A DNA stretch of 64,000 nt from Microbacterium paraoxydans (GTDB taxonomy: Bacteria; Actinomycetota; Actinomycetes; Actinomycetales; Microbacteriaceae): contig NZ_CP064873.1 in the NCBI RefSeq assembly GCF_019056515.1, positions 3,286,001 through 3,350,000 on the forward strand, given 5' to 3'. The position numbers and the translations under genes were made by a program. Below the pieces are notes generated by a model, which was given only the letters and a program-made list of their open reading frames with translations, did no database searches and was not told the origin of the DNA. This document shows, one piece after another, positions 14,552 through 32,473 of the stretch. Position 1 is the first letter of the stretch; every line of letters starts with the position of its first letter.

Positions 14552-14620
14552 TGCACGACCGGAGTCCGGGTGCACGACGGATCCTGGAGATCCGTCGTGC
14601 ACCCGTCACTTCATCGTGCC
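14552..14620. repeat. Nested inverted-repeat element (X-X-X'-X', 19-nt spacing), terminator-like
   Basis: A perfect 16-nt stem, GGGTGCACGACGGATC (14568-14583), faces its complement at 14589-14604 over a 5-nt loop. A second copy of TGCACGAC lies 19 nt to the left (14552-14559), and a second TCGTGC 19 nt to the right (14614-14619), giving the same four-unit plan as the 77-nt elements but with a shorter core. It separates the convergent regulator and ClpP genes and enters the last codons of the latter. Confidence 0.65.
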
Positions 14621-15213
14621 TCCGGATCACGGGGACCGAGCACAGTGTCGATGAGGCCGTAGTCGAGGGCGGCGGCGGCGGTGAAGACCCGGTCCCGGTC
14701 GGTGTCGGCGCGGAGCTCCGCGAGGGAGCGGCCGGTGTGCCGACCCAGGATCGTCTCCATGTCCGCGCGCACCCGCACGACCTCGTCGGCCGCGAGGATG
14801 AGGTCCGGGATGGCTCCGCGCGACTGACCGGCCGGCTGATGCAGCACGATGCGCGCGTGGGCGAGGGCCGCCCGCTCCCCCGGCGCTCCCGCCGCGACCA
14901 GCAGGGCGGCCGGACCGATGGCCTGCCCGACGCACGTCGTCGCGATCCGCGGACGGATGTGCTGCATGGTGTCGTAGATCGCCAGCGCGGCACCGGGATC
15001 CCCGCCCTCGCTGTTGATGTAGAACTGGACGCCGGTCTCCGGGCTGTCCGCGTCGAGGTGCAGGAGCTGCGCGATGAGGGCGTTCGCCACCCCCGCGTCG
15101 ATGCCGGTGCCGAGGTAGATGACCCGCTCGGCGAGCAGATGCGAGTACACGTCCATGACCCGCTCGCCCCGCGGATGCTGGGCGATGACGTTCGGGATCG
15201 TGTAGCTGCTCAT
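14611..15213 (-). CDS. ClpP-like subunit lacking the catalytic serine (ClpR-like)
   Basis: A 200-residue ClpP fold. The nucleophile elbow, GQAASMG in ordinary ClpP, reads GQAIGPA here: position 100, where Ser should be, is Gly. His125 (VLHQPAGQ) and Asp174 (TDRDRVFTA) of the triad remain. It is therefore predicted to be proteolytically inactive but able to form heptamer rings, like ClpR of cyanobacteria and plastids. Its ATG overlaps the upstream clpP stop (ATGA), arguing for equimolar hetero-oligomers. These are not the housekeeping clpP1-clpP2 genes, which normally sit beside clpX and tig. Confidence 0.85.
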   Translation of the reverse strand: MSSYTIPNVIAQHPRGERVMDVYSHLLAERVIYLGTGIDAGVANALIAQLLHLDADSPETGVQFYINSEGGDPGAALAIYDTMQHIRPRIATTCVGQAIGPAALLVAAGAPGERAALAHARIVLHQPAGQSRGAIPDLILAADEVVRVRADMETILGRHTGRSLAELRADTDRDRVFTAAAALDYGLIDTVLGPRDPEAR

Positions 15214-15824
15214 GCGTCCGCCCCCAGTCCCACCCGCGCACGACGACGCGGCAGGATCTCCGCCGTCGACTGCACGATCTCGTCGATGAACCCGTAGTCC
15301 CGCGCCTCGGCGGCGGTGTACCAGCGGTCATGGAGGGAGTCCTCGAAGATCCGCGCGAGGGGCTGACCGGTGTCGTCGGCGATGAGGCCGAGGACGGTGT
15401 CGCGCATGTGCCGGAGGTCGTCGGCCTGTGCCTCGATCTCCACCGCCGATCCGCCGATCCCCGCCGAGCCCTGGTGCATGAGGATCCGCGCGTGCGGGAG
15501 AGCGCGCCGCTTGCCCTTCGTCCCCGCGGAGAGCAGGAACTGCCCGGCGCTGCAGGCGAGACCGAGGGCGAGGGTGGAGACGTCGTTCGGGATGAGGTGC
15601 ATGAGGTCGCGGATCGCCAGCATCGACGGCACGGACCCGCCGGGCGAGTGGATCCAGAGGGCGATGTCGGCCGCCGGATCCTCGGCGGAGAGGCCGAGGA
15701 GCTGCGTCATCAGGAGGGTGCCGTTGTCGTCGTCGAGGGCGCCGTCGAGGACGAGCACCCGCTCGTGGAACAGGGCGCGCCGGGCCTCGGGGCCGAACTG
15801 CGGGAGAGGTTTGTCTTCGCTCAT
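15210..15824 (-). CDS. clpP: ATP-dependent Clp protease proteolytic subunit, ClpP (active triad)
   Basis: A 204-residue serine protease with a complete triad: Ser92 (LACSAGQFLL), His117 (LMHQGSAG) and Asp166 (LHDRWYTA). ATG 15824 (MSEDKPLPQ) starts it; an upstream in-frame start would add 35 low-complexity residues. It is the first gene of a two-gene operon with the serine-less ClpP-like subunit and should provide the only cutting sites of a mixed tetradecamer. AAA+ partners (ClpX, ClpC) must come from elsewhere. Likely regulated by the adjacent PopR/ClgR-type protein. Confidence 0.9.
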   Translation of the reverse strand: MSEDKPLPQFGPEARRALFHERVLVLDGALDDDNGTLLMTQLLGLSAEDPAADIALWIHSPGGSVPSMLAIRDLMHLIPNDVSTLALGLACSAGQFLLSAGTKGKRRALPHARILMHQGSAGIGGSAVEIEAQADDLRHMRDTVLGLIADDTGQPLARIFEDSLHDRWYTAAEARDYGFIDEIVQSTAEILPRRRARVGLGADA

Positions 15825-15960
15825 GACCCCAGCCTCCGGCTCCGGCTGCGGCCGCGGAAGCGAATCCGCCCGGAGCAGATCCGCTGTGGGCGGCGGCGTG
15901 TGCACCCGCCGGAAAACGCGACGTAACACCGCCGACGCACGACCCGCCTAGCCTCGGGGC

Positions 15961-16431
15961 ATGGCGAAACAGAAAGCACCCGCATGGCAGTCCGAGGACG
16001 GCCTGAACTTCCGCACCCGCAAGTGGGTGCGCCCGGAAGACCTCAACGCGAACGGCACGCTGTTCGGCGGAAGCCTGCTGAAGTGGATCGACGAGGAGGC
16101 CGCGATCTACGCGATCGTGCAACTCGGCAACTACCGCGTCGTCACCCGGCACATCTCCGCCATCACGTTCGAGGCGTCGGCGGTGCAGGGCGACCTCATC
16201 GAGATCGGGCTGCAGGCCACCCGTTTCGGCACCACGTCGCTCACCATGCGGGCCGTCGCGCGCAACATGATCACGCGCAAGCGCATCCTCACCATCGACG
16301 AGATCGTGTTCGTCAGCATCGGCGAGGACGGCCTGCCCACCCCGCACGGCTACGACGAGATCACCTACGATCGCGACCGCATGCCCACCGAGCGCATCGC
16401 CACCGGCACGATCCCCCTCCCGAAGCGCTGA
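15961..16431 (+). CDS. Acyl-CoA thioesterase (hotdog fold, YciA/BACH type)
   Basis: A 156-residue single hotdog-domain protein. The motif NANGTLFGGSLLKWIDEEAA is the signature of this thioesterase group, with Asn and Asp as active-site residues; the central strand HISAITFEASAVQGD and RFGTTSLTMRAVA follow. It hydrolyses acyl-CoA, probably short to medium chain. It is monocistronic, divergent from clpP with a 136-nt gap. A 77-nt repeat element follows its stop. Confidence 0.82.
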   Translation: MAKQKAPAWQSEDGLNFRTRKWVRPEDLNANGTLFGGSLLKWIDEEAAIYAIVQLGNYRVVTRHISAITFEASAVQGDLIEIGLQATRFGTTSLTMRAVARNMITRKRILTIDEIVFVSIGEDGLPTPHGYDEITYDRDRMPTERIATGTIPLPKR

Positions 16432-16443
16432 CCCTCATTCGCC

Positions 16444-16520
16444 GACCCACCCCCTTGAGGTCGACCCACCCCCGAAAGTGCGTCATTTATGGGGGTGGGT
16501 CGCACGGAAGGGGGTGGGTC
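16444..16520. repeat. 77-nt nested inverted-repeat element, GACCCACCCCC family, copy 1
   Basis: GACCCACCCCC occurs at 16444 and again at 16463; its complement GGGGGTGGGTC at 16491 and 16510. The order X-X-X'-X' has 19-nt unit spacing and a 17-nt central loop beginning GAAAGTGCGTCA. It fills the gap between the convergent thioesterase and coiled membrane protein genes, so it may end transcription from both sides. A second copy lies at 18071-18147 in the opposite orientation. Confidence 0.85.
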
Positions 16521-16525
16521 AACGA

Positions 16526-17931
16526 TCAGCGGTGGGTGACGCGGTGACCGATCCAGAAGCCGATCGCGATCAGGCCGACCAGACCGATCCCGAGGATCCA
16601 CGGGAGCAGAGAGGGTGCGGCGCCGGCCGTGGCCGTCGCGAGGGTGCCGGAGCCGTCGGCGATGCGCCCGTTGCCCGCCGCGAGGTCGGCGGCACCCGCG
16701 TCGAGCTTCGCGCTTCCGGCCGCGAGGGTACCGGACCCCTCGGCGACCGCGTCGGCGCCGGTACGGAGTTCGGTCATCCCGGACCGGAGGTCACCGGCAC
16801 CCGACTGCAGCGCGTCGACGCCCGTGGCCAGAGTCCCGGCACCCTCGTCGAGCCGGGCCGCGCCGGCGCTGAGCTCCGCGGTGCCGGAGTACAGCGACGA
16901 TGCTCCGGTCGAGAGGGTCTGCAGCCCGGACGAGAGATCCGCCGCGCCCGCCGCGAGCCGGGAGGTGCCGTCCTGCAGCGTCTGCGCTCCGGCGACGAGG
17001 GCGGGAGCGCCCTTCGGGGAGACCAGCGCCACGGTTCCCGGCCAGCCCTTCGAGGTGTCGCCGTTGATGAGCGCACCGACGCCGGCCGTAACACGAGCGG
17101 AGCCGTCGGCGGCGCCGATGAGTCCCTGTGCGAGGCCCGGAGCAGCCGCGGCGGGGGCGGCCAGCGCGCCGACCTGCTTCTCGACGCCGGCGGCGAGCCC
17201 CGCGAGCTGCTGGAGCTGCACATCGGCAGGGTTCGCCGCGAGGAGACCCTGCAGACCGGCGGCGAGCGTCCGCGCATTGCCGGGAGCACTCGTGGCGACG
17301 CCCGTCAGCAGGGCCTTCGTCTCCGGATGGGCGAGTTTCTGCACATCGGCACTCACTCCGGCGCGCAGGGTGGTGCTGAGGGTCGTCGCCCCCTCGAGCA
17401 CACCGTTCGCGTACCGGTGCGCGCCGTCGACACCGGCGGCGAGAGTGGTCGCGCCGTCGACGAGCTGCCGGGCCCCGGCGTCCGCCGCCGCCATCTTCGC
17501 CGCGAGCTCCTGCGATCCGGCGAGCGCCGTCTGGGCTCCGCCGCTCACCCGTCCCGCACCGTCGAGGGCCGTGGCGGCTCCCGCGGCGAGGGTGCCCGCA
17601 CCCTCCGCGAGCGTGGTGGCGCCCGCGGCGGCGGTCGTCGCGCCGTCACTGAGCTTCGCCGATCCCTGCTGCGCCGTCGCGGTGCCTGTCGCGAGATCCT
17701 GCGTGCCCGCGGCCAGCTCGTCGGCCCCCGCGGCGAGGTCGGCAGCACCTGCGGCGAGGTCCGCGGATCCCCCTGTGCGGTGGTGGTGCCGTCCGCGAGT
17801 TCCGAGGCGCCCGCGGACACCTTGCTCATCGTGGCGAAGAACAACAGCACCATCGCCGCCAGCAGAAGGCTGAGGACGATCACGGCGATGCGCATGCCGA
17901 GGCCGTGCGCGTGGGTCTTTTCACTCGTCAT
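16526..17931 (-). pseudogene. YhgE-like membrane protein with long Gly/Ala heptad-like stalk, broken by a 1-nt frameshift
   Basis: The 5' part (17545-17931) gives MTSEKTHAHGLGMRIAV, a transmembrane helix and the start of an ASELADGTTTAQG repeat. The 3' part (16526 to about 17768) continues the same repeat style (LAAGAADLSSGLQ, LDEGAGTLATGVD) and ends in a second membrane helix and HRVTHR. They are one gene: adding one nucleotide to the CCCCC run at 17769-17773 joins the frames into a 468-residue protein with N- and C-terminal anchors and a helical extracytoplasmic stalk typical of the YhgE/Pip group. It could be a sequencing indel or a real lesion. Confidence 0.75.
17769..17773. other. Homopolymer frameshift site in the YhgE-like gene
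   Basis: CCCCC on the + strand. One more C restores the repeat pattern in a single frame (TAQGG-SADLAAG). Downstream of this point the upstream frame becomes Arg/Pro/Ser-rich shadow sequence. Confidence 0.65.
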
Positions 17932-18070
17932 TGAGGACTCCCGGGGTCAGTGGCGTCGTTGCCACCCGCGACTGTAGGCCCGCCCTCTCCGCGACCCCCC
18001 GGTTTTGCCGCTAGGAACCAAGTCCCACCTCAGGCGATACTCAGTTTCTTGTCGTCCTCACACAATCGCC

Positions 18071-18147
18071 GATCCGGCCCCTTATGTGCGAGCCACCCCC
18101 ATATGTGACGCACTTTCGGGGGTGGGTCGCACGGAAAGGGGTGGGTC
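18071..18147. repeat. 77-nt nested inverted-repeat element, GACCCACCCCC family, copy 2 (inverted)
   Basis: Read on the minus strand it begins GACCCACCCC, then CGACCCACCCCC, loop GAAAGTGCGTCACATAT, and GGGGGTGGCTCG, matching copy 1 position for position over most of 77 nt. The last arm has degenerated (GGGGCCGGATC). It covers the 3' end of the adjoining PLP-enzyme gene, whose last ~22 codons and stop (18082) lie inside it. Confidence 0.8.
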
Positions 18148-19320
18148 GGCGAGAGTCGCGAAGGCGTTCGCGAGGTCGGCGAGGAGATCGTCGACGTCCT
18201 CGAGGCCGATGGACAGGCGCAGGACGTCGGCGGCGGGACGCGCCTCCGCGGGGACCGGGCGGTGCGTGAGCGCGGCGGGGTGCTGGATGAGGGAGTCCAC
18301 GCCCCCGAGCGACACGGCGTGCGTGAAGAGGCGGGTCGCCCCGGCCACCGCTGCGGCCGCTGCATAGCCGCCGCGCAGCCGCAACGCGATCATCGCCCCC
18401 GGCCCGCGGAGCTGCCGTTCCAGGATGCCGCGCGGATCCCCGTCGAGCCCGGGATAGAAGACCTCGGCGACCTCCGGCCGATCGACCAGCCACTGCACGA
18501 TGCGACGAGCGCTCTCCTGCTGGTGCCGCACGCGGACCGGCAGGGTCGTGAGACCGCGGTGCAGCAGGTACGCGCCGAGCGGGTGCAGGAGCCCCCCGGT
18601 CACCGCACGCACGCGACGCAGCGCCTCCGCGGTCGTCTCGTCACAGGCGACGACGCCGGCGATGACATCACCGTGGCCGCCGAGGTATTTGGTGGCGCTG
18701 TGCAGCGACATCGCCGCGCCGTGATCGATCGGGTTCTGCAGCACGGGGGTCGCGAACGTGTTGTCGACCACGACCGGCGCGCTCCCCGCCTGCCGCACGA
18801 CCTCGGCGATGTCCGCGACCTCGAGGGTCGGGTTCGCCGGCGTCTCCACGACGACGAGTCCGGTGTCGGCGCGCAGCGCGGCGGCGACCTCGTCGGGACG
18901 GCAGTACGTCGTCTCCACGCCGAGCAGACCGGACCCGAGCAGGTGGTCGGTCCCCCCGTAGAGCGGACGCACCGCGACGACGTGCCGCGCTCCCGTGGCG
19001 CCCGTGTGCGCGAGGATCACGGCGGTCATGGCCGCCATCCCGGAACCGAAGGCCACGGCGGCCTCGGCGTGCTCCAGCTCGGCGAGGGCGTCCTCGAAGC
19101 GCGCGACCGTCGGGTTCCAGAGGCGGGCGTACACCATGCTGCCGTCCTGCGGCGGCCGCCCCCCGGTGGCCATCGCCTCATACGAGTCGCCGCCGCGCTC
19201 GACGTCGGGCAACGGGTTCGTCGTGGAGAGGTCGATCGGCAGGGCGTGGACCCCGAGCGCCTCGAGGTCGGCACGGCCGCTGTGGACGGCCACGGTGTCG
19301 GGATGCAGCGGTGCGGTCAT
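18082..19320 (-). CDS. Trans-sulfuration PLP enzyme (cystathionine gamma-synthase/lyase or methionine gamma-lyase family)
   Basis: A 412-residue Cys/Met-metabolism PLP enzyme: YARLWNPTVARFEDALAELE, VVVETPANPTLEVADI, and the cofactor lysine in SLHSATKYLGGHGDV (about residue 206). HAVSLGGVDSLIQHPA and LRLSIGLEDVDDLLADL complete the fold, where relatives normally end. The final ~22 residues (from LADPPLS onward) are translated from a 77-nt repeat element and are probably an add-on. It diverges from an Lrp/AsnC regulator, which suggests amino-acid-controlled catabolism; synthase versus lyase cannot be told from sequence alone. Confidence 0.85.
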   Translation of the reverse strand: MTAPLHPDTVAVHSGRADLEALGVHALPIDLSTTNPLPDVERGGDSYEAMATGGRPPQDGSMVYARLWNPTVARFEDALAELEHAEAAVAFGSGMAAMTAVILAHTGATGARHVVAVRPLYGGTDHLLGSGLLGVETTYCRPDEVAAALRADTGLVVVETPANPTLEVADIAEVVRQAGSAPVVVDNTFATPVLQNPIDHGAAMSLHSATKYLGGHGDVIAGVVACDETTAEALRRVRAVTGGLLHPLGAYLLHRGLTTLPVRVRHQQESARRIVQWLVDRPEVAEVFYPGLDGDPRGILERQLRGPGAMIALRLRGGYAAAAAVAGATRLFTHAVSLGGVDSLIQHPAALTHRPVPAEARPAADVLRLSIGLEDVDDLLADLANAFATLADPPLSVRPTPESASHMGVART

Positions 19321-19432
19321 CCCTCCACGCTGGCCGAATCGCGGGGTTCTCGCTGGTCTTCGACAGAACAACTCATCGAATCCGGGATCCTCGCTATTCT
19401 GTGCAACATCCGGCCGTACCGTGGAGGGCACG
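19321..19432. promoter_or_regulatory. Divergent promoter region between PLP enzyme and Lrp regulator
   Basis: This 112-nt gap must hold both promoters. It contains ACAGAA (19363-19368) and TTCTGT (19397-19402) as inverted arms and an extra GTTCT at 19346, in a locally AT-richer stretch. Lrp/AsnC octamers bind such spaced degenerate arms, so this is the likely control region. Confidence 0.4.
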
Positions 19433-19900
19433 TTGGCGAAAGCGCAACTCGACGAGATCGACCTGGAGCTGCTCGCCGCCCTGAGCCGCGATGCGGCCGT
19501 CACCAACAAGGCTCTGGCCCACCGCCTCGGACTCGCGGAATCCACCTGCGCCCACCGGATCCGCGGCCTGCGCGAGCGCGGAGTCATCCGCGACACGCGC
19601 GTCCGCCTCGACGGCTCCGCTCTCGGCTACCCCCTGCAGGCGATCATCAAGGTCCGCCTCGCGCATCACACCGGGCCCAAGGTCACGGCGCTCTTCGACG
19701 CGCTCGTCGCGATCCCCCGCGTGCTCCAGGTGTTCCACGTCGCCGGGGTGGACGACTTCCTCGTGCACGTGGCCGTCCAGGACGCGACCGCCCTCCGCGA
19801 CATCGTGCTCGAGCACATCACCGTCCACCCCGTCGTCCGCGGCACCGAGACCCAGCTCGTGTTCGAGCTCCGCGACGGCACGGGTTTCCTCCCCCGCTGA
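19433..19900 (+). CDS. Lrp/AsnC-family transcriptional regulator
   Basis: A 155-residue protein: N-terminal HTH (AQLDEIDLELLAALSRDA, then ESTCAHRIRGLRERGVI) and a C-terminal RAM/AsnC ligand domain (ALGYPLQAIIKVRL, VFHVAGVDDFLVHV). TTG 19433 with GGAGGG at 19423-19428 is the likely start; GTG 19421 is possible. It is divergent from the trans-sulfuration enzyme, the usual arrangement for local control by an amino-acid ligand. An acyl-CoA synthetase follows after 42 nt. Confidence 0.85.
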   Translation: MAKAQLDEIDLELLAALSRDAAVTNKALAHRLGLAESTCAHRIRGLRERGVIRDTRVRLDGSALGYPLQAIIKVRLAHHTGPKVTALFDALVAIPRVLQVFHVAGVDDFLVHVAVQDATALRDIVLEHITVHPVVRGTETQLVFELRDGTGFLPR

Positions 19901-19942
19901 ACGAGGGGGCAGGATGGAGGGACGCCGTTGCAAAGGAGCACC

Positions 19943-21652
19943 ATGAGCCGTCGTGCCACCCCCGCCACCGAAGCGATCCGCGGGATGAGGGACCTCCTCT
20001 TCACGCACGCCACGGACTACGACGCCGCGCGCCGCGAGTTCGCCTGGCCCGACCCGACCGCCTTCAACTTCGCGCTCGAGTGGTTCGACGTCGTCGCCGG
20101 GGAGAACCCCGACCGTCCGGCCGTGCAGATCGTCGAGGCCGACCTCAGCCTCCGCTCCTGGACGTACGGCGAGCTCTCCGCCCGGTCCGACCAGGTCGCC
20201 GCCTGGTTGCGCGGCCTCGGCATCGGCCGGGGCGACCACGTGATCGTCATGCTCAACAACACGATCGAGCTGTGGGAGGTGATGCTCGCGATCACGAAGC
20301 TGGGCGCGGTGTCGATCCCGACCTCGACGCTGCTGTCGGCCTCCGACCTCGCGTACCGCATCGAGCACGGCCGCGCCGGCGCCGTCGTCACCCTCGGCAC
20401 CCTGGCCGACCGCCTCGAGGGGATCGACCCCGCGGTACTGCGCATCGGCGTGGGCGCGTCGCTGCCTGCCGACTGGAAGCGGTTCGCGGACGCCGCCGCC
20501 ACCACGGAGGAGTTCGTTCCGGACGGCCCGACGCCCGCCGGCGACACGGCCCTGCTGTACTTCACGTCCGGCACGACGAACCGCCCGAAGCTCGTGCAGC
20601 ACACCCACGTCTCCTACCCGGTCGGCCACCTCTCCACGATGTGGTGGCTCGGCGTACGCCCGGACGACGTGCACCTCAACATCTCCTCCCCCGGGTGGGC
20701 CAAGCACGCCTGGTCGAGCTTCTACTCGCCGTTCCTGGCCGAGGCGACGGTGTTCGTCTACAACTACGACCGCTTCGACGCGAACACGCTCATGGAGGTC
20801 ATGGACACCCATCACGTCTCGACGTTCTGCGCCCCGCCCACCGTCTGGCGCATGCTCATCCAGGCCGACCTCTCCCGGCTCGGGCACCCTCCGCGCGAGC
20901 TCGTCGGCGCCGGCGAGCCGCTGAATCCCGAGGTCATCGACCGGGTGCGCGAAGCATGGGGCGGCACGATCCGCGACGGCTTCGGGCAGACGGAGATGAC
21001 CGCCTGCATCGGCAACTCCCCGGGGCAGACGGTCAAGGTGGGATCGATGGGCCGTCCGCTGCCCGGGTACCCGGTCGTGCTGCTCGATCCGTCGACGGGC
21101 GAGGTCGTGGAGGACGAGGGCGAGATCGCGCTCGACCTCGCCCAGCCGCCACTCGGCCTCATGGCGGGGTACTACGACGATCCGGAGAAGACCGCGGAGT
21201 CGCGGGCCGGGGGCTTCCATCACACCGGAGACATCGCCGTGCGCGACGCCGACGGCTACCTGACCTACATCGGACGCTCCGACGACGTGTTCAAGGCCTC
21301 CGACTACAAGATCTCGCCGTTCGAGCTCGAGTCCGTGCTGCTGGAGCACGACCTCGTCGTCGAAGCGGCCGTCATCCCCAGCCCCGACCCCACGCGCCTG
21401 GCGGTCCCGAAGGCGTACGTGTGCCTGACGCCGGACGCGGGCGCGGACGAGGCCGCCGCCGCGCGCGCCGTGTTCGGCTACGCGCACGAACGGCTGTCCT
21501 CGCACCTGTGGGTGCGGATCATCGAGTTCGTGCCCGAGCTGCCGAAGACGATCTCCGGGAAGATCCGCCGCGTCGAGCTGCGGGCACGCGAGAGCGCCCG
21601 CGTGGCCGCGGGCGACGAGGCGCGGCAGCACCGCGACCGCGACTACCGCTGA
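19943..21652 (+). CDS. Acyl-CoA synthetase (AMP-forming, medium-chain/benzoate-like)
   Basis: A 569-residue ANL-superfamily enzyme. Motifs: the P-loop-like LLYFTSGTTNRPKLVQHTH, the adenine-binding GFGQTEMTA, HHTGDIAVRDADGYL, and the C-terminal lysine in LPKTISGKIRRVELR. The N-terminal extension and the SSPGWAKHAWSSFYSPF block suggest the ACSM (MACS) subgroup acting on medium-chain or aromatic acids. AAGGAG precedes ATG 19943. The substrate is not determinable from the window; the gene may be co-transcribed with the Lrp regulator. Confidence 0.85.
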   Translation: MSRRATPATEAIRGMRDLLFTHATDYDAARREFAWPDPTAFNFALEWFDVVAGENPDRPAVQIVEADLSLRSWTYGELSARSDQVAAWLRGLGIGRGDHVIVMLNNTIELWEVMLAITKLGAVSIPTSTLLSASDLAYRIEHGRAGAVVTLGTLADRLEGIDPAVLRIGVGASLPADWKRFADAAATTEEFVPDGPTPAGDTALLYFTSGTTNRPKLVQHTHVSYPVGHLSTMWWLGVRPDDVHLNISSPGWAKHAWSSFYSPFLAEATVFVYNYDRFDANTLMEVMDTHHVSTFCAPPTVWRMLIQADLSRLGHPPRELVGAGEPLNPEVIDRVREAWGGTIRDGFGQTEMTACIGNSPGQTVKVGSMGRPLPGYPVVLLDPSTGEVVEDEGEIALDLAQPPLGLMAGYYDDPEKTAESRAGGFHHTGDIAVRDADGYLTYIGRSDDVFKASDYKISPFELESVLLEHDLVVEAAVIPSPDPTRLAVPKAYVCLTPDAGADEAAAARAVFGYAHERLSSHLWVRIIEFVPELPKTISGKIRRVELRARESARVAAGDEARQHRDRDYR

Positions 21653-21655
21653 GCG

Positions 21656-25283: not shown

Positions 25284-25286
25284 GCG

Positions 25287-25739
25287 TCAGGCGACCGACT
25301 CGAGGGTCGCGGGCCGTGCGGCCGCGACCTTCGGGGCGAAGACGCGGGGGCGGAGCGCGAGGAACAGCAGCACCATGCCGGCGGCGAGCAGCATGTGCCC
25401 CACGCCCGCGATGCCGGCGATCATCTTCGTCGACTCCTGGCCGAGCACCGTGAGGCAGCCGTGCCAGACGAGCATCGCCGAGGTCAGCACGAGCCCGGCG
25501 GTGTAGGTCCAGAAGAACCAGCCGAACAGCCGGCTCTCGGAGAGCGCGAAAGCCTTCTCCAGGAGCATCACCACGAGGAAGACGACGAAGCCCAGCACGA
25601 GCAGATGCGTGTGCACGAGTCCGAGCTGCGTCGGCGCCCCCTCCGGGAAGCCGTTGATCTTGGTGAACTCACGGTAGAAGAGTCCGGAGGCGACGCCCAC
25701 CAGCATGGAGGCGAACGCGGCGGTGAAGAGCCTGCGCAT
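25287..25739 (-). CDS. DUF2871-family membrane protein
   Basis: A 150-residue protein with four hydrophobic helices. FYREFTKINGFPEGAPTQLG and LVHTHLLVLGFVVFLVVMLLE are the characteristic DUF2871 blocks; conserved His residues in HTH and GHM might bind a metal or haem, but this is speculative. It converges on the permease with a 3-nt gap and lies upstream (same strand) of the two-component response regulator. Function unknown. Confidence 0.75.
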   Translation of the reverse strand: MRRLFTAAFASMLVGVASGLFYREFTKINGFPEGAPTQLGLVHTHLLVLGFVVFLVVMLLEKAFALSESRLFGWFFWTYTAGLVLTSAMLVWHGCLTVLGQESTKMIAGIAGVGHMLLAAGMVLLFLALRPRVFAPKVAAARPATLESVA

Positions 25740-25817
25740 GGGAGTCCTTTCTGTCTGCCTCCAGCCTCGCCGTGGGGCCGTCGCCGCGGATCCATCGAAC
25801 GGTTGAGACCGCGGGCG

Positions 25818-26441
25818 TCAGAGCAGACCGGACTCCCTGGCGATCGCGACCGCCTTCGCGCGGCTGTCGGCCCCGAGCTTCTCGAAGACGTGCACGAGGT
25901 GGGTCTTCACCGTCGCCTCCGTGACGAACAGCGCCTTCGCGATCTCCCGGTTCGAGGCCCCGGTGTCGAGCAGCCGCAGCACGTCGAGCTCGCGCCCCGT
26001 GAGCTGCACCCGCGGGGCGCGGAGGGCGCGGCCGACGCGCGCCGTGAGCTCCGGCGTCAGCGCCTGCCCGCCCGACGCGGCCTGTCGCACGGCCCGGACG
26101 ATGTCCTCCGGGTCGATGTCCTTGAGCAGGTACCCCGCCGCCCCCGCCTCGATCGCGCCGAGGATCTGGGCGTCGCGGTCGAACGTCGTGAGGATGAGCA
26201 CCGCCGGGGCCGGGTCGAGCGCCCGGAGCGCCGCCGTCGTCTGCACGCCGTCCATGCCCGCCCCCAGCCGCAGATCGCAGAGGACGACGTCGGGACGGAG
26301 GTGCCGGGCGAGGACGACCGCCTCCTCCCCCGACGCGGCCTCGCCCACGACCTCGGCGTCGTCGCGGCGGTCGAACAACGAGCGCACGCCGGCGCGCACG
26401 ATGGGGTGGTCGTCGACGAGCAGGATCCGTACAGGGGTCAC
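25818..26441 (-). CDS. NarL/LuxR-family response regulator
   Basis: A 207-residue protein. The N-terminal receiver has DDHPIVR, the phospho-acceptor Asp in VVLCDLRLG (about residue 55), TTFD and K in YLLKDIDPED. The C-terminal LuxR HTH reads LTGRELDVLRLLDTGASNREIAKAL with recognition helix EATVKTHLVHV. GTG 26441 overlaps the histidine-kinase stop (GTGA), so kinase and regulator form one operon. The regulated genes are not obvious; the DUF2871 gene downstream is one candidate. Confidence 0.9.
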   Translation of the reverse strand: MTPVRILLVDDHPIVRAGVRSLFDRRDDAEVVGEAASGEEAVVLARHLRPDVVLCDLRLGAGMDGVQTTAALRALDPAPAVLILTTFDRDAQILGAIEAGAAGYLLKDIDPEDIVRAVRQAASGGQALTPELTARVGRALRAPRVQLTGRELDVLRLLDTGASNREIAKALFVTEATVKTHLVHVFEKLGADSRAKAVAIARESGLL

Positions 26442-27679
26442 GACCGGCCTCCGAGGGGCAGGTGGGCCGACAGCGCGGTGCCGTCGCCGGGGGCGCTCTC
26501 CACGTCGAGACCGCCGCCGAGCTCGCGCAGTCGGGCGCGCATCGACCGCAGGCCGTAGCCGCCGCCGGGCCCCGCCGAGTCCAGCCGCGACGGGTCGAAG
26601 CCGCGACCGTCGTCGACCACGTCCAGCCGCACCGCGTCGCCGGCGTCCGCGAGGGTCACCACCACCCGAGTGGCGCCGGCGTGGCTGCGCACGTTGGCGA
26701 GCGCGGACTGCGCCGTCCGCAGCAGGGCGACCTCGGCATCGAGGCCGAGTGCGGGCAGATCGTCGGCATGGAAGGTGGCCGCGATCCCGGTCTCGGCGGT
26801 CAGGCGCTCGAGCATCCGGGCAAGGGCGTCGCTCAGCGCGGAGCCGTCCAGCTCGGCGGGCATGAGGTCGTCGACGATGCGTCGGGCGTCGGCGAGCCCT
26901 TCCGCGGCGAGCGCCCCGATCTGCCCGAGCGCCCGCTCCCGGCCGTCCTCGTGCTCGGCCGCCGACCGCGCCAGCAGGACGATGGAGGACAGGCTCTGGG
27001 CGACCGTGTCGTGGATGTCGCGCGACACCCTGGTGCGCTCGGCGGCGGCGCCGGACTCCCGCTGGGTCCGGGCGAGCTCGTCCTGGAGGGCCGCCATCTC
27101 CTGCTGCGTCGCGACGAGGGACGCGATGAGTCGCCGCCGCTCCCGCCCGTCGCGGACGAGCTCCAGGTAGCCGCGGGAGATCCCGAGGGCGAAGATGCCG
27201 CCCACCAGCGGCCCGATCACGTTCGCGTAGGTGGTCGTCCCGGTGTGCAGCAGCGGCGCGACGATCACGACGGCGAGGATGAGGACGCTGAGCAGCACAG
27301 CCCATCGCAGTCGCAGCAGGAAGCCGGCGAGCAGCCACAGCGAGAACGCCAGCCAGACGAACTCCGGCGACAGCGCCACCGCCCCCAGCCAGATGGCCGT
27401 GAGCCCCAGCAGCCAGCCGGCGGCGAGCGCCCGGTCGTCCGTGCGGGAGGAGAGCAGGAGTCCGCCGCCGTACCAGCCGAGGAAGGCGAGGGCGGTCGCG
27501 AGCAGCCACGGCACCGGGACCCCGTCGGCGAGGGAGCGGACGACGCCGACGACGGTGAGCACGACCGTGATGACGGCCTGGCCGATGCGGAGCGACGTGA
27601 CCAGGCGCCCCCAGGAGCGCGTGCGTGCTCCCGACCGCCCACCGGGGTGGTCGGTCGCGGCGGTGTCTCCGGTCGGCAT
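26438..27679 (-). CDS. Two-component sensor histidine kinase (HisKA_3 type)
   Basis: About 413 residues. Six or so hydrophobic helices span residues ~20-165, then a coiled segment and the HisKA_3 phospho-acceptor SRDIHDTVAQSLSSI (His about residue 216). The ATPase follows with N-box-like SALANVRSHA, VDDGRGFDP and GGGYGLRSM. ATG 27679 is used; ATG 27718 is possible. The membrane input domain without a large loop suggests sensing within the bilayer (envelope stress or a lipophilic signal). It is the partner of the downstream response regulator. Confidence 0.85.
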   Translation of the reverse strand: MPTGDTAATDHPGGRSGARTRSWGRLVTSLRIGQAVITVVLTVVGVVRSLADGVPVPWLLATALAFLGWYGGGLLLSSRTDDRALAAGWLLGLTAIWLGAVALSPEFVWLAFSLWLLAGFLLRLRWAVLLSVLILAVVIVAPLLHTGTTTYANVIGPLVGGIFALGISRGYLELVRDGRERRRLIASLVATQQEMAALQDELARTQRESGAAAERTRVSRDIHDTVAQSLSSIVLLARSAAEHEDGRERALGQIGALAAEGLADARRIVDDLMPAELDGSALSDALARMLERLTAETGIAATFHADDLPALGLDAEVALLRTAQSALANVRSHAGATRVVVTLADAGDAVRLDVVDDGRGFDPSRLDSAGPGGGYGLRSMRARLRELGGGLDVESAPGDGTALSAHLPLGGRS

Positions 27680-27734
27680 GCTGACATTCTCGTCCGCCGG
27701 GCCGGTGTGCGCCTCCATCGTTCGGTCGACCCGG

Positions 27735-27793
27735 TTCGAATCGCCCGATTGGCGGCATCCGGCCCGGATTTGGGACCAATCAGGCGATTCGAA
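27735..27793. repeat. 59-nt inverted-repeat element bounded by TTCGAA, copy 1
   Basis: TTCGAATCGCCCGATTGG (27735-27752) pairs with the complementary 27776-27793 segment with one mismatch in 18. It lies between the divergent histidine kinase and YigZ genes, within their promoter gap. Two other elements of exactly the same length and end sequence occur at 47058-47116 and 50277-50335. Confidence 0.8.
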
Positions 27794-27812
27794 CGGAGGT
27801 ATCGTGGGGCCG

Positions 27813-28466
27813 ATGTCGACACCGCACCCGTTCCCGGCGACGATCGCGGCAGCCGTCGACCACGAGCTCGTCATCCGCAAGTCGCGCTTCCTCACGCACG
27901 TCGCACCGGTGTCGACGGTGGCCGAAGCCGAAGCCGTCATCGCGACGATCCGGAAGCGCGCCTGGGACGCGAACCACAACTGCACCGCGATGGTGACCGG
28001 TCTGCACGGGGATCAGGCGCGCTCCTCGGACGACGGCGAGCCCTCCGGAACAGCCGGCGTCCCGATGCTCGAGGTCCTCCGGCGCCGCGGCCTCACGGAC
28101 GTCGTCGCGGTGGTCACCCGCTACTTCGGCGGGGTGAAGCTCGGGGCGGGCGGCCTCATCCGCGCCTACTCCACCGCGGTGTCCGAGACGCTCGACCGCG
28201 CCGCACTCGTCCGTCGCGCGGCGCTCACCCAGGCGACCGTCGAGGTCCCGCACGCCGAGGCCGGCCGCTACGACAACCTGCTCCGCGACTGGGCGGCGTC
28301 CCACGGGGCCACGCTCGGCACGCCGACCTACGGGGCCTCCGCCCAGCTGGAGCTGTGGGTACCCGCCGCCGCGCTTCCGCGTCTGACCGCCGACCTCGCC
28401 GCCGCGTCCGGGGGCGCCGTGGCCCCGGTGGCCGGGATCGAGCAGATCGTCGACGTCGCGGACTGA
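27813..28466 (+). CDS. yigZ: YigZ/IMPACT family protein
   Basis: A 217-residue protein with the UPF0029 N-terminal domain: IRKSRFLTHVAPVSTVAEAE, AWDANHNCTAMV, DDGEPSGTAGVPML and VTRYFGGVKLGAGGLIRAY, all diagnostic. The C-terminal ~75 residues match the DUF1949 ferredoxin-like domain. Eukaryotic IMPACT binds GCN1 and modulates translation control; the bacterial role is unclear. GGAGG precedes ATG 27813. A J-domain protein follows 65 nt downstream. Confidence 0.88.
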   Translation: MSTPHPFPATIAAAVDHELVIRKSRFLTHVAPVSTVAEAEAVIATIRKRAWDANHNCTAMVTGLHGDQARSSDDGEPSGTAGVPMLEVLRRRGLTDVVAVVTRYFGGVKLGAGGLIRAYSTAVSETLDRAALVRRAALTQATVEVPHAEAGRYDNLLRDWAASHGATLGTPTYGASAQLELWVPAAALPRLTADLAAASGGAVAPVAGIEQIVDVAD

Positions 28467-28531
28467 GGCCTCCCGGCGGCCGCACACCGTCCGACGGATA
28501 TCCTGGACGCCGCGGTCGCGGAAGGAGAGCG

Positions 28532-29449
28532 ATGTTCGACAGTCCGCTCTCGGCCTCGCCGTACGAGATCCTCGGCGTGGATCCGGCCGTCGACGACGCC
28601 GAGCTCCGGCGGGCGTATCGGCTGCGACTGCGGCAGACCCACCCCGACACCGGCGGCGACGCGGCCGTGTTCATCCAGGTCCAGCGCGCGTGGGAGCTCA
28701 TCGGCACTGCAGAGGACCGCGCCGCGTACGACCGCCGCGCGGGCCTGACCGACGACGGCGGCGAATGGAGCGGCTGGCGTCCCCCGACGGTGCGCACCGA
28801 CACCCGGCCGCGCGCCCGCTCCTACGGACACCCCGGGGGCTGGCGCCGCGAACGCTACCTCTCCCTGATCCGCGAGTGGGCGGGTCACGGGGTCGAGGTC
28901 CCCGATCCGTACGCCCCGGCCCTCGTCCGCGCCGCCCCGCGGGAGCTCCGCCGGCTGCTCGCCGACGCGCTCGCGGAGGAGGCCACGGCCCGCACGGTCT
29001 CCGACCTCGGCATGGGCTTCACGGTCTGGCACGACGTCGCCGCAGGACAGACCCCCGAGGACAAGCTCGACCACGTGGTGCTCAGTCCCTCCGGCCTCTA
29101 CGGCGTCATGTCCGAGGACTTCGGCGGGGTCGTGGGGTTCCGCCGCGGGGAGATCACCGGCCCGAGCCTCGGCACGCGGGCCCCGGTCACCGCGGCTCTC
29201 GCCCGGATGCGCGCGGTGGCGAAGGCCGCGAAGGTGAAGTTCGGCGGGGCGATCGTGGTGCTGCCCGACGACGACCTCGCCCAGGCGGTCACCCCGCTCG
29301 GCAGCAACCGCGGGGTCCCGGTCGTGGTGGTGCGGCGCAGCGCGCTGGCGATGGTCCTGCGGCAGGGCGTCCCCGGGGCGCGGGCCATCGGCGGCAACGA
29401 GCTGTTCGATGTCCGCACCCGTCTGCAGCAGACGGTCCGCTTCGTCTGA
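28532..29449 (+). CDS. J-domain protein with NERD-like C-terminal domain
   Basis: A 305-residue protein. Residues ~9-67 form a J domain (SPYEILGVDPAVDDAELRRAY) with the essential HPD in QTHPDTGG, so it should stimulate a DnaK ATPase. There is no Gly/Phe or zinc-finger region. The C-terminal half contains DKLDHVVLSPSGLYGV, resembling the core strand of NERD (nuclease-related) domains with its conserved D-H, followed by VKFGGAIVVLPDDD. The combination is unusual; a nuclease or DNA-linked role is speculative. GGAGAG precedes ATG 28532. Confidence 0.7.
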   Translation: MFDSPLSASPYEILGVDPAVDDAELRRAYRLRLRQTHPDTGGDAAVFIQVQRAWELIGTAEDRAAYDRRAGLTDDGGEWSGWRPPTVRTDTRPRARSYGHPGGWRRERYLSLIREWAGHGVEVPDPYAPALVRAAPRELRRLLADALAEEATARTVSDLGMGFTVWHDVAAGQTPEDKLDHVVLSPSGLYGVMSEDFGGVVGFRRGEITGPSLGTRAPVTAALARMRAVAKAAKVKFGGAIVVLPDDDLAQAVTPLGSNRGVPVVVVRRSALAMVLRQGVPGARAIGGNELFDVRTRLQQTVRFV

Positions 29450-29482
29450 CGGCGGCGACGCGCCCGGCATCCCGGCATGCTC

Positions 29483-29499
29483 TTTTGAATCACTCAAAA
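29483..29499. promoter_or_regulatory. Candidate FurA operator
   Basis: TTTTGAATCACTCAAAA is a perfect 6-5-6 inverted repeat in an AT-rich patch 20 nt before the furA ATG. FurA-type repressors of the furA-kat locus bind AT-rich sequences at their own promoter, so autoregulation of the furA-katA unit is the probable role. Confidence 0.6.
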
Positions 29500-29518
29500 C
29501 ACGTGTAGAGTCGAGGGC

Positions 29519-29938
29519 ATGGAGACGGAACTCGACTCGGCGTTGCGCGACGCCGGGCTGCGTGCGACTGCGGGCCGCGTCGCCGTTCTCGAGGCTCTCG
29601 GCTCCATGGCCCACACGGATGCGGAGCGGGTGTACCGCGCCGTGTCCGACGTGCTTCCGACCACGTCGATCCAGTCGGTGCACAACATCCTCGCGGACCT
29701 GACGACGGCGGGCCTCATCCGCCGGATCGAACCGGCAGGCTCCGCGGCGCTGTACGAGCGGCGCATCGACGACAACCACCACCATGTCGTCTGCACCTCC
29801 TGCGGTGCGGTCGGCGATGTGGACTGCGTCGTCGGCGAGGCGCCGTGTCTCACCCCGTCCTCGACGGGGGGCTTCACCGTGCAGACAGCTGAAGTCACCT
29901 TCTGGGGCCTCTGCCCCAGCTGCCAGAACGCCGCGTAG
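29519..29938 (+). CDS. furA: Fur-family peroxide/iron regulator (FurA/CatR-like)
   Basis: A 139-residue protein. The winged HTH ([17 protein letters not shown], then [20 protein letters not shown]) is followed by the metal-binding dimerisation domain, with [20 protein letters not shown] and CPSCQNA giving two CxxC zinc sites. The position directly upstream of katA is the classic furA/catR-catalase arrangement in Actinobacteria, where the repressor is inactivated by peroxide oxidation. It should control itself and katA from the palindrome at 29483-29499. Confidence 0.9.
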
Positions 29939-30002
29939 GCGCATCCACCGATCCCCTCCCCGAGGGTCCGTTCGGCATGTCCGCGCGGAGAAGGAGAAGA
30001 CC

Positions 30003-31472
30003 ATGACCAACCCCACCGACGCGGGCCGTCCGGCCACGACGACGCAGGCCGGAGCGCCGATCGCGAGCGACACGCACTCGCTGACCGTGGGCCCCGACGG
30101 CCCCACCGCGCTGCACGACCACTACCTGGTCGAGAAGCTCGCCTCCTTCAACCGCGAGCGGGTGCCGGAGCGCAACCCGCACGCCAAGGGCGGCGGCGCG
30201 TTCGGCGAGTTCGTCGTCACCGAGGACGTCTCGAAGTACACGCGTGCGGCCGTGTTCCAGCCGGGCGCCACCTCGGAGACCCTCCTCCGCTTCTCCTCCG
30301 TCGCCGGTGAGCAGGGCTCGCCCGACACCTGGCGCGACGTCCGCGGGTTCTCGCTGCGCTTCTACACGACCGAGGGCAACCTCGACATCGTCGGCAACAA
30401 CACCCCGACGTTCTTCCTCCGCGACGCCATCAAGTTCCCCGACTTCATCCACTCGCAGAAGCGCCTCGGCGACTCCGGCCTGCGCGACGCGGACATGCAG
30501 TGGGACTTCTGGACCCTCTCGCCCGAGAGCGCCCACCAGGTCACCTACCTCATGGGCGAGCGCGGCCTGCCCCGCAGCTGGCGTCACATGAACGGCTACG
30601 GCTCGCACACCTACTCGTGGATCAACGCCGAGGGCGAGGTGTTCTGGGTGAAGTACCACTTCATCTCGCACCAGGGCGTCGAGGCGATGAGCCCGGAGGA
30701 GGCCGAGCAGCTGGCCGGTTCCGACGCGGACCACTACCGTCGCGACCTGTTCCAGTCGATCGCCGAGGGCGACTTCCCGAAGTGGGACCTGTACGTGCAG
30801 ATCATGCCGTACGACGAGGCCAAGGACTACCGCTTCAACCCCTTCGACCTCACCAAGACGATCTCGAAGAAGGACTACCCGCGCATCAAGGTCGGCACGC
30901 TGACCCTGAACCGCAACCCGGAGAACTTCTTCGCGCAGATCGAGCAGGCCGGCTTCGCGCCGGGGAATCAGGTGCCCGGTACCGGCATCTCCCCCGACAA
31001 GATGCTCATGGGCCGCATGTTCGCCTACCCGGACGCCCAGCGTCACCGCATCGGCGCGAACTACAACCAGCTGCCGGTCAACCAGCCGCACGCCGCCGAG
31101 ACCCGCAACTACCAGCACGAGGGCTCGATGCGGTACCAGTACAACGACGCCGCGCACCGCACCTACCAGCCGAACTCCTTCGGGACCCCCGGTGGCCCCG
31201 CGGCCGACCCGGCGAAGGGCATCGAGGTGAACTGGTCGGCGGACGGCGAGCTCACCCGCTCCGCCGCGACGCTGCACGCCGAGGACGACGACTTCGGTCA
31301 GGCCGGCACGCTGTACCGCGAGGTCTTCGACGGCCCGCAGCGCGCCCGCTTCCTGGAGGTCTTGACCGGTCAGGGCCGCTCGATCACGGTCGACGCCATC
31401 CGCGAGCGCTTCTTCCAGTACTGGACGAACGTGGACGCCGAGCTCGGCGCCGCTCTGCGCGACCGCGTCTGA
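30003..31472 (+). CDS. katA: Monofunctional haem catalase
   Basis: A 489-residue small-subunit (clade 3) catalase. The active-site His lies in [18 protein letters not shown] (about residue 60), the distal Asn in [12 protein letters not shown], and the proximal haem ligand Tyr in [23 protein letters not shown] precedes ATG 30003. It disproportionates hydrogen peroxide in the cytoplasm and is presumably derepressed with furA, 64 nt upstream. The 77-nt GAGACCCC element immediately after its stop may terminate it. Confidence 0.95.
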
Positions 31473-31475
31473 CCC

Positions 31476-31552
31476 GAGACCCCGGGTTCTCCTCGAAACC
31501 CCCTCTCCGCGACACCGCGGGGAGGGGGTTTCGGCGTGTAACCGGGGTCTCG
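31476..31552. repeat. 77-nt nested inverted-repeat element, GAGACCCC family, copy 1
   Basis: GAGACCCCG (31476) and GAAACCCCC (31495) are followed by the complements GGGGGTTTC (31524) and GGGGTCTCG (31544). The unit spacing is 19 nt, the central loop 18 nt and the total 77 nt. It begins 4 nt after the katA stop and ends before the hydrolase start. It shares every segment length with copy 2 at 32397-32473. Confidence 0.85.
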
Positions 31553-31589
31553 GCGCCAGGGAAGGGAGGAGTGGGGGGAGGATGGTGGG

Positions 31590-32390
31590 GTGGCTGTTCC
31601 CCTCTCCGACCTCACCGAGATGCCCGACCCGCAGCACGTCTACGCGGCGGACGGCACACGACTGGCGACGTACACGTGGGGAGAGCTCGACGCCCCCGTC
31701 GTGGTGACCGTGCACGGCTTCGCCTCGGGCGCGCGCGACAACTGGGTGCTCACCGGCTGGGTGCGCGAGCTGACCAGGGCCGGGTACCGCGTGCTCGCAC
31801 TCGACCAGCGGGGGCACGGGCAGAGCGACAAGCCGCACGAGTCCGACGCCTACGCCATCCGCAACCTCGTGACCGACGTCGAGACCGTCATGGACACGTA
31901 CCTCGTCGACGACGCGTTCTACCTCGGCTACTCGCTCGGCGCCCGGGTGGGGTGGGAGGTGGCCCGCGAGCTCCCGCATCGGATCGGCCGGGCGGTCCTG
32001 GGCGGGGTCCCCGACGGCATCCCCCTCGCGCGTCTGGACCTCGACCAGGTGCGCGCGTACATCGCGGACGGCACCCCGGTGGAGGACCGCACGACGCAGA
32101 ACTACATCGCGCTGACCGAGCGGGTGCCCGGGAACGATCTGCGCGCGCTCATCGCCCTGGCCGAGGGACTTCGGGGCTCCGGCACGATCGATCCCGATCC
32201 CGCGGACGCCCCGGTCGTGCCGCTGCTGTTCGCGACGGGATCGAAGGACGCGATCATCGAGGGCTCCCGGGCGCTGGCGGCCGCGGCTCCCGATGCCCGT
32301 TTCGTCGAGCTCCCGAACCGCCACCACTTCAACGCCCCCGGCTCCCGCGACTTCAAGCAGGCCGCGCTCGGTTTCTTTGCCGAGTCCTGA
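31590..32390 (+). CDS. Alpha/beta-hydrolase
   Basis: A 266-residue hydrolase with VVTVHGFASGARDNW (oxyanion region), DQRGHGQSDKP, the nucleophile elbow GYSLGAR (Ser about residue 113), a late Asp in ATGSKDAII and a catalytic His in LPNRHHFNAPG. The substrate is unknown; esterase, lactonase or C-C hydrolase are open. GTG 31590 lies behind GGGGGGAGG; ATG 31620 is an alternative. The gene is bracketed on both sides by GAGACCCC-family 77-nt elements. Confidence 0.85.
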   Translation: MAVPLSDLTEMPDPQHVYAADGTRLATYTWGELDAPVVVTVHGFASGARDNWVLTGWVRELTRAGYRVLALDQRGHGQSDKPHESDAYAIRNLVTDVETVMDTYLVDDAFYLGYSLGARVGWEVARELPHRIGRAVLGGVPDGIPLARLDLDQVRAYIADGTPVEDRTTQNYIALTERVPGNDLRALIALAEGLRGSGTIDPDPADAPVVPLLFATGSKDAIIEGSRALAAAAPDARFVELPNRHHFNAPGSRDFKQAALGFFAES

Positions 32391-32396
32391 CCCCGC

Positions 32397-32473
32397 GAGA
32401 CCCCGTCTACGCGCCGAGACCCCCTCCTACACTCGCGTGCAGGAGGGGGTCTCGGCGGGAAAGCGGGGTCTCG
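32397..32473. repeat. 77-nt nested inverted-repeat element, GAGACCCC family, copy 2
   Basis: GAGACCCCG (32397), GAGACCCCC (32416), GGGGGTCTC (32445) and GGGGTCTCG (32465) in X-X-X'-X' order. Segment lengths equal those of copy 1 (9-9-12-18-10-8-11). It fills the gap between the convergent hydrolase and msrA genes. The inner loop sequence differs from copy 1, so only the arms and geometry are conserved. Confidence 0.85.

What the first reader, a model, noticed from the sequence alone, without database searches (positions are those of the whole stretch)
14552..32473. Fixed-geometry nested repeats: four 77-nt elements in two unrelated sequence families
Elements at 16444-16520, 18071-18147, 31476-31552 and 32397-32473 are each exactly 77 nt and follow X-X-X'-X' with a 19-nt unit spacing. 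Arms are GACCCACCCCC in the first pair and GAGACCCC in the second, so the geometry is conserved while the sequence is not. A shorter relative (14552-14620, arms TGCACGAC) keeps the 19-nt spacing. Because outer and inner arms are identical, alternative pairings exist, so the RNA or DNA could switch structure. All lie at or next to gene 3' ends. A conserved architecture with interchangeable arms suggests selection on shape, or copying by a mechanism that recognises it.
Basis: partly seen in the sequence, partly recalled or inferred. Interest (0 to 1): 0.78.

Follow-up and report, generated by a model that had tools for sequence, protein, structure and literature searches.

The report
Fixed-spacing palindromes at gene ends
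In the bacterial genus Microbacterium, many gene ends carry nested hairpins of roughly 70-80 letters made of short arms set 19 letters apart; several unrelated arm sequences share this one spacing, and what holds it fixed is not known.

Summary
The five elements belong to three families spread over this Microbacterium genome: A (GACCCACCCC, 34 loci), B (GAGACCCC, 32 loci) and C (TGCACGAC, about nine places, mostly not inspected). A scan for geometry alone finds 19 nt as the dominant spacing in the Microbacterium DNA sampled, with about ten further arm sequences, and never in the other families of the order sampled. In orthologous copies the arms change about 3-9 times more slowly than spacers and centres. 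In B the inner stem covaries; the internal loop does not. 58 of 66 A and B elements lie within 30 nt of a stop codon (random placement 10%). Families differ between close species and replace one another at the same gene end; copies of one family cluster at neighbouring genes. Structural switching is not supported. Best reading: dispersed, family-specific 3'-end elements whose arms are read by a factor of fixed spacing and whose inner hairpin acts at RNA 3' ends. Neither the factor nor the copying machine was found; Y1 transposases are absent in 8 of 8 genomes. Limits: one family uses 18 nt, unit number varies, centre length differs between families, and some species sampled gave none.

The parts
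14552..14620 (.). Family C element (arms TGCACGAC / GTCGTGCA, 19-nt spacing; last arm decayed), between two convergent stop codons (TGA 14538-14540; TCA 14611-14613 overlaps it)
   Evidence: present at the same place in L098 and G172 (L279)
16444..16520 (.). Family A element, X-X-X'-X', arms GACCCACCCCC; 12 nt after TGA 16429-16431, 5 nt before the convergent stop 16526-16528
18071..18147 (.). Family A element, opposite orientation to 16444, two arms decayed; the called stop of the minus-strand gene 18082-19320 lies inside it
31476..31551 (.). Family B element, 76 nt; outer arms GAGACCCC/GGGGTCTC, inner arms GAAACCCC/GGGGTTTC (compensated); 3 nt after TGA 31470-31472
32397..32472 (.). Family B element, 76 nt; 6 nt after TGA 32388-32390 and 5 nt before the convergent stop 32478-32480
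15961..16431 (+). Gene upstream of the 16444 element, used as query for related loci (called a thioesterase from recall; no family search was run)
16526..17931 (-). Gene between the two A elements (YhgE-like by recall), in two reading frames here and in one frame in the relative L098
31590..32390 (+). Gene between the two B elements (alpha/beta hydrolase by recall)

Best explanation
A class of dispersed, non-coding 3'-end elements built from 19-nt modules: a family-specific arm of about 8-13 nt plus a freer spacer, usually two modules in a row followed by the same two inverted. Within a family the arm is a sequence-specific recognition site for an unknown factor that reads tandem arms 19 nt apart. 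The inner arm pair plus a free-sequence stem makes a strong hairpin that works, most likely as RNA, directly after the stop codon (ending or protecting transcripts, often for two convergent genes at once). SHOWN: the geometry across families, dispersal, 3'-end placement, slow change of arms at fixed sites, inner-stem covariation in B, gain/loss and family replacement between species.
For: Geometry: 19 is the dominant spacing in this genome and in the Microbacterium loci sampled. Rigidity: in 32 of 32 B loci the two half-modules start exactly 49 nt apart, 31 by pattern and one by reading. Covariation in B: pairs 28-30 have 31, 25 and 25 of 32 paired against 17.9, 13.2 and 15.8 in shuffles (p 0.0005, the limit); positions 10-15 pair no more than shuffled. 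Selection in place: A orthologs G000/G172, 16 ungapped of 19 aligned of 21 tried: arms 1.6% (inner) and 2.3% (outer) changed, spacer 10.8%, centre 12.8%, flanks 4.5%. B orthologs: arms 2-4%, spacer 8-12%, centre 14-27%. Placement: 58 of 66 within 30 nt of a stop or overlapping it, 55 within 15; random 10.1% and 5.7%; 2 of 58 with both neighbours called are divergent, random 50%. Spread: same-family neighbours under 3 kb, A 7 against 0.96 expected (p 0.0002); under 2 kb, B 4 against 0.58 (p 0.0024); A near B not raised. Turnover: one gene end carries B, a B variant, A, another hairpin or none in different species; G029 has GAGTGCACGG elements where G000 has A.
Against: No reader or enzyme was found: Y1_Tnp 0 of 8, RVT_1 1 of 8, Mu-transpos_C 6 of 8 genomes, none tracking the elements. 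No RNA data. Only 1 of 64 B ends has a T-rich tail. Copies were collected by their arms, so arm identity between copies is partly built in; only the ortholog comparisons escape this, and the B one needed exact length. A shows little compensation between orthologs and only a small covariation excess. The single clean presence/absence site shows no target duplication and its polarity is open. G004, G007, G021 and G031 (80 kb each) and two G015 stretches gave no 19-nt hit.
Confidence: 0.5

Rival explanations
1. Ordinary two-way transcription terminators: hairpins kept after stop codons by selection, whose arms doubled by tandem duplication; no special reader and no mobility.
For: Placement after stops and between convergent genes. 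Simple hairpins sit at the same 3' ends in some species, including single X-X' hairpins with GAGACCC arms (L226, L228, L246). Inner-stem covariation in B.
Against: Does not explain identical arms in dozens of loci while the rest diverges, one spacing for unrelated arms, same-family clustering or family replacement at one site. T-rich tail in 1 of 64 B ends.
Confidence: 0.2
2. Miniature transposons of a DDE transposase that binds tandem end repeats (Mu/Tn7/Tn5053 type), mobilised in trans; each half is a transposon end with two sites.
For: Tandem sites of about 19-22 bp at both ends, inverted, are a feature of such transposons (recalled). Mu-transpos_C genes in 6 of 8 genomes, two in G000. Copy number and local clustering fit.
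Against: G034 has no Mu-transpos_C match but carries 19-nt elements. The 6-kb stretches around both G000 genes hold no A or B arm; one lone C arm lies inside a reading frame of L342. B half-modules with 0 or 1 mismatch all belong to the 32 compact elements; the six unpaired matches have 2 mismatches, as many as the control pattern gives. A free-sequence inner stem that covaries is not expected of a transposon end.
Confidence: 0.12
3. Sites of a recombinase that reads folded single-stranded DNA, like integron attC sites, making gene plus element a movable cassette.
For: Two conserved stem segments, a free terminal hairpin and a place right after a stop codon resemble attC; pairs of elements of one family often enclose one or a few genes.
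Against: The two arm copies point the same way within the stem, whereas R and L boxes are inverted (recalled). Copies are dispersed, not in one array. In L099 the gene between the two A elements is present while the site before it holds a simple hairpin. No integrase search was run.
Confidence: 0.05
4. REP/BIME elements spread by a RAYT (Y1) transposase.
For: Dispersed palindromes next to stop codons, several families per genome.
Against: No Y1_Tnp in 8 of 8 genomes, while 5 of 14 control genomes are positive; a GTAG or CTAC within 10 nt of the ends in 1 of 32 B elements.
Confidence: 0.03

Closest known systems
REP / BIME elements with RAYT transposases
   Same: Dispersed palindromic intergenic repeats, several sequence families per genome, often close to a stop codon; PMC12306157 (passages seen) cites work that REPs within 15 nt of a stop codon stall ribosomes
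   Different: No Y1 transposase found, no GTAG-type foot in 31 of 32 B copies, and a tandem-arm geometry with one spacing shared by unrelated families
Stem-loop sequence families and MITEs of bacteria (PMC2267715, abstract and outline seen; PMC10969869, start of abstract in a listing)
   Same: Small, non-coding, inverted-repeat, multi-copy, intergenic
   Different: No longer version with these ends found in the own genome, no target duplication at the one clean site, and the class is held together by geometry, not by sequence
Integron attC sites (PMC11641012, start of abstract in a listing; structure details recalled)
   Same: Two conserved stem segments separated by an unpaired stretch, variable terminal hairpin, just after a stop codon
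   Different: Direct, not inverted, arm order within the stem; dispersed; integrase not examined
Spaced motif pairs near gene 3' ends (PMC5217627, passages seen)
   Same: Genome-specific palindromic pairs at 3' ends, frequent between convergent genes
   Different: The passages describe single pairs in unrelated genomes, not a two-plus-two layout kept across arm families

Membership tests
REP/BIME | Dispersed intergenic palindromes in many copies | tested here: met
   34 A and 32 B loci, none of the 66 inside a called gene
REP/BIME | RAYT-type Y1 transposase in the genome | tested here: not met
   PF01797 in 0 of 8 Microbacterium genomes; 5 of 14 control genomes positive
REP/BIME | GTAG-type foot beside the stem (recalled) | tested here: not met
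   1 of 32 B copies; A and C not tested
MITE | Terminal inverted repeats | tested here: met
MITE | Target-site duplication | tested here: inconclusive
   One clean site (G000 against G172): no duplication visible, 3 nt differ, polarity open
MITE | Autonomous parent with the same ends | tested here: not met
   Own genome, family B: unpaired half-modules (6, all with 2 mismatches) do not exceed the control (5+1); family A and other genomes only by a scan of 1.9 Mb of stretches
Intrinsic terminator | Stable hairpin just after the stop codon | tested here: met
Intrinsic terminator | T-rich tail | tested here: not met
   1 of 64 B ends, counted as TTTT or 6 or more T in the first 12 nt
Intrinsic terminator | RNA 3' ends at the hairpin | not testable with these tools
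   no RNA data held
attC site | Inverted R and L boxes in the folded stem (recalled) | tested here: not met
   arms are direct within each half
attC site | Integron integrase | not tested
   no search run
Tn7/Mu-type end repeats | Transposon carrying the same arms beside a TnsB/TniA-like gene | tested here: not met
   6-kb stretches around both G000 Mu-transpos_C genes hold no A or B arm; ends further out and other genomes were not seen

The most novel reading that the evidence does not exclude
A new class of mobile 3'-end elements run by an unknown family of sequence-specific factors that read two tandem arms 19 nt apart, probably on a folded strand. Each factor has its own arm 'dialect'; dialects turn over and replace each other at the same gene ends between related species while the geometry, set by the protein, stays fixed. 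The genus thereby rewires the ends of its transcripts in bursts.
Probability: 0.3. Interest if true: 0.85.

Novelty: new variant of a known kind. Interest (0 to 1): 0.7.

Why it matters
Repeat families are defined by sequence. Here several unrelated sequences share one exact layout, which points to a reader whose spacing is constant while its sequence taste changes. If true it gives a genus-wide test bed for how dispersed hairpins copy themselves to gene ends, why they stay, and what they do to transcripts; dozens of loci with orthologs of graded age are available.

Tried and rejected
Structural switching between registers: rejected on energies. Shape alone as the selected trait: rejected, arms change slowly in place. 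Nested insertion of one hairpin at the central CG of another (my own idea from the A alignment): not supported; by my reading none of the 56 long hairpins found in 464 kb is a lone A or B palindrome, and arrays with 3+2 or 2+3 units fit module gain better, though single X-X' hairpins with GAGACCC arms exist in other species. A longer transposon with the same ends: none by half-module searches; the 8 long-distance pairs at 19 nt equal the 8 at 21 nt, and at least six of the 8 join two complete neighbouring elements. RAYT, reverse transcriptase, Mu-type transposases; the control rang in none of the 14 known genomes. Rfam: no hit in the window at the gathering score. Covariation for A on a hand-drawn structure: small but above shuffles (84.2% of cells paired against 82.2%, covariation 0.147 against 0.119, 1 of 500 shuffles as high). 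Other genera of the family: the B pattern is near its control in most of 299 genomes; G474 has CGAGACGCC arms at 19 nt, found because the pattern pointed there. Family C copies other than the window's were fetched but not studied. Literature: nothing on these repeats among the listings (open-licence PMC papers only; searches returned no paper). Three papers were opened: PMC12306157 and PMC5217627 as passages, PMC2267715 as outline and abstract.
Full report
What was checked. The window lies in a 3.6-Mb genome. The genus is Microbacterium: the best named hit to the gene 15961-16431 is Microbacterium sp. LCT-H2, 100% in the protein (L098).

Dispersed families. A 161-nt query around 16444 gives 37 matches in the own genome, both orientations counted. 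A covariance model built from 30 own copies gives 68 matches, that is 34 loci on two strands, in the own genome; it also hits G005 (38 matches), G023 (10), G013 (4), G015 (4), G008 (2) and G029 (1), so 7 of 58 genomes with the own one counted, under strict filters. Family B: the half-module GAGACCCC-N11-GAGACCCC with up to 2 mismatches gives 33 forward and 36 reverse matches, the reversed control pattern 5 and 1. I read 32 loci from it; in each the reverse half starts 49 nt after the forward half (31 by pattern; at 1539541 the forward half has more than 2 mismatches but sits at the same distance). The six unpaired matches all have 2 mismatches. Family C: 12 matches at about nine places, several of them partial; apart from the window copy these were not studied.

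Geometry without sequence. I scanned for four 8-nt arms X, X, X', X' with free spacing d and at least 22 of 24 matches. Own genome, 464 kb: 20 of 30 hits at d=19 with d from 10 to 34, 20 of 34 with d up to 40, and 9 of 9 among hits of score 23 or more. Two Markov shuffles gave 2 hits, none at 19. The own stretches are biased: 17 of 20 were taken around A matches; the other three gave none; the window gave 4 of 4. In 42 loci fetched by an unrelated criterion (homologues of the gene 15961-16431; 41 Microbacterium records and one Microbacteriaceae bacterium, 805 kb) 15 of 21 hits are at 19 and shuffles gave none; besides A and C arms these show TGCATGA, GGCGGAGA, CTGCAGGAC, TGTCGGGA, CGAAGGAG, CCGCAGGAG, TGCAGGAG, GCAGGTCG and ACACTTGTCAG, some of which resemble one another. 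In 38 loci of other genera (mostly Arthrobacter and relatives, one Leucobacter of the same family; 713 kb) 0 of 2 hits are at 19, and in 160 kb of two other families of the order 0 of 5. Same-genus stretches at fixed positions: G034 2 of 2; G004, G007, G021 and G031 none at 19. G005 and G013, partly chosen around A matches: 5 of 5; G015 none. G029: 11 at 19 and 3 at 18, the latter one family with ATCAGGC arms. Twenty stretches of other Microbacteriaceae genera: 2 of 9 at 19, both in G474 stretches picked by pattern; the shuffles of this set gave 6 hits, one of them at 19, so this set by itself proves nothing about spacing.

Unit number. In G209, arrays were fetched because the pattern showed extra units. 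By arm search the strings ++--, ++---, +++-- and ++---- occur; the step inside a half is 19, with 17, 20 or 21 at some outer units and one irregular long array (L309); the step across the centre is 31, once 32. So the module repeats, and two plus two is the common state.

Anatomy. In B the period is about 13 conserved letters (CGYCGAGACCCCG) and 6 freer ones with a TT. Over the 32 copies the pairs of the centre next to the inner arms covary, while positions 10 to 15 between outer and inner arms pair no more than shuffled. The four C of the arm are invariant in all four arms of all 32 copies, but the copies were found by these arms. The picture is an outer conserved stem, an internal loop, an inner conserved stem, a free-sequence stem and a small loop. 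In A the same drawing gives a small covariation excess. The nested fold dominates: P(X1:X4) and P(X2:X3) are 0.997 or more in 16444, 31476 and 32397, and 0.74 and 1.0 in 14552; register-shifted folds are 20-33 kcal/mol worse for the first three.

Selection in place. Over the 2-kb test region G172 is 98% and G029 93% identical to the own genome. Of 31 A loci tried (3 of 34 not tried), 25 could be mapped in the G172 stretches I held and 25 of 25 carry an A element at the same place; 6 were unmapped. For 21 of these loci I aligned element and 60 nt on each side: 2 no hit, 3 with gaps, 16 ungapped. Changed letters in the 16: outer arms 8 of 352, inner arms 4 of 256, spacers 38 of 352, centre 37 of 288; flanks of the 19 aligned 100 of 2241, gaps counted. 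Pairing in A is not clearly kept: changed pairs broke about as often as they formed. B orthologs found with an exact-length pattern (so indel-free by construction), 6 pairs with each genome: arms 2-4%, spacers 8-12%, centre 14-27%. Without that pattern, 5 of 8 B loci tried could be mapped in G029: four intact, one (3167891) broken.

Placement. None of 66 A and B elements lies inside a called gene. 60 have a stop codon facing them on at least one side; 58 lie within 30 nt of it and 55 within 15, overlaps included. For 76-nt windows placed at random in the 141 element-free gaps of at least 78 nt the figures are 10.1% and 5.7%. With both neighbours called (58), 28 lie between convergent, 28 between tandem and 2 between divergent genes; random placement gives 11, 39 and 50%. 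Gene calls are from my own codon-usage caller trained on this genome, not from an annotation.

Movement and turnover. In G029, 8 of 14 A loci tried could be compared on both sides and one on one side: by my reading no element at 2571741, 3061165, 2920310 and 2562885; a simple hairpin at 2938335; another long palindrome at 2612569; a degraded A-like sequence at 2983839; at 2604811 an element with unrelated arms GAGTGCACGG, and another of that family beside the one-sided site 2605973. One clean site differs between G000 and G172: TTCCTGATTCCCGGCGGCCTCGATTT against the same flanks with a B element in place of GGC. At that gene end other species hold a B variant (G209), GAGACCCA-arm elements (G002, G063), an A element (G220), another palindrome (G029), a simple hairpin (G151) or nothing that I can see (G005, G148); in most of them an extra gene also lies there, so polarity is open. 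Same-family neighbours are much closer than chance, A to B not. L098 and the window share the 16444 element but the three central letters read ACG against CGT, consistent with an inversion of the loop (one case).

What drives it. Y1_Tnp 0 of 8 genomes. RVT_1 1 of 8, in G005. Mu-transpos_C 6 of 8; not in G034, which carries 19-nt elements, nor in G183, where the B pattern is only a little above control (8 against 3). The two G000 loci look like a four-gene Tn7-like set (L343) and a two-gene IstA/TniB-like set (L342); these names are my reading of the translations. Neither stretch has A or B arms; L342 has one lone C arm inside a reading frame. The factor is unknown.

Verdict. A real, selected class of 3'-end elements, widespread in Microbacterium, whose geometry is kept while the arm sequence is exchanged between families. 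I file it as a new variant of dispersed palindromic repeats, not as a member of REP, MITE or attC. The mechanism is inferred from anatomy: a sequence reader of tandem arms plus an RNA-level hairpin, with spread by copying. I give this 0.5; plain terminators without a reader 0.2.

Noticed in passing
window 47058-47116; L012:17103-17161; L024:13592-13646: A second kind of long near-perfect intergenic palindrome of about 55-59 nt with (TT)CGA-type ends and no tandem arms, three copies with related ends.
   Followed up: no
L250 (G029 site matching G000 2612569) and L329: A long palindrome with TCGCGATATGACAGCCAAAA-like arms sits at gene 3' ends in G029 where G000 (A) or G172 (B) carry an element.
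   Followed up: no
window 16526-17931: The YhgE-like gene (name recalled) is in two reading frames in this genome but in one frame in the relative L098; pseudogene or sequencing error not decided.
   Followed up: no
G000:C1:93500-99500 (L342) and 640500-647000 (L343): Two transposon-like gene sets with Mu-transpos_C proteins, one resembling Tn7 with four genes.
   Followed up: partly
L017:12566-12619; L244 (gap before the minus-strand gene): Palindromes with CTTCGACA(G/A)GCTCAGGGACC arms, several copies in a row in L244.
   Followed up: no
window 59643-61257: Tandem repeats of about 165 nt followed by a 12-nt repeat that would read Thr-Asp-Pro-Gly; a likely surface protein by its look only.
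   Followed up: no
L010:15148-15234: Tandem ATGGATAGC..GCTATCCAT palindromes, perhaps a regulator site.
   Followed up: no
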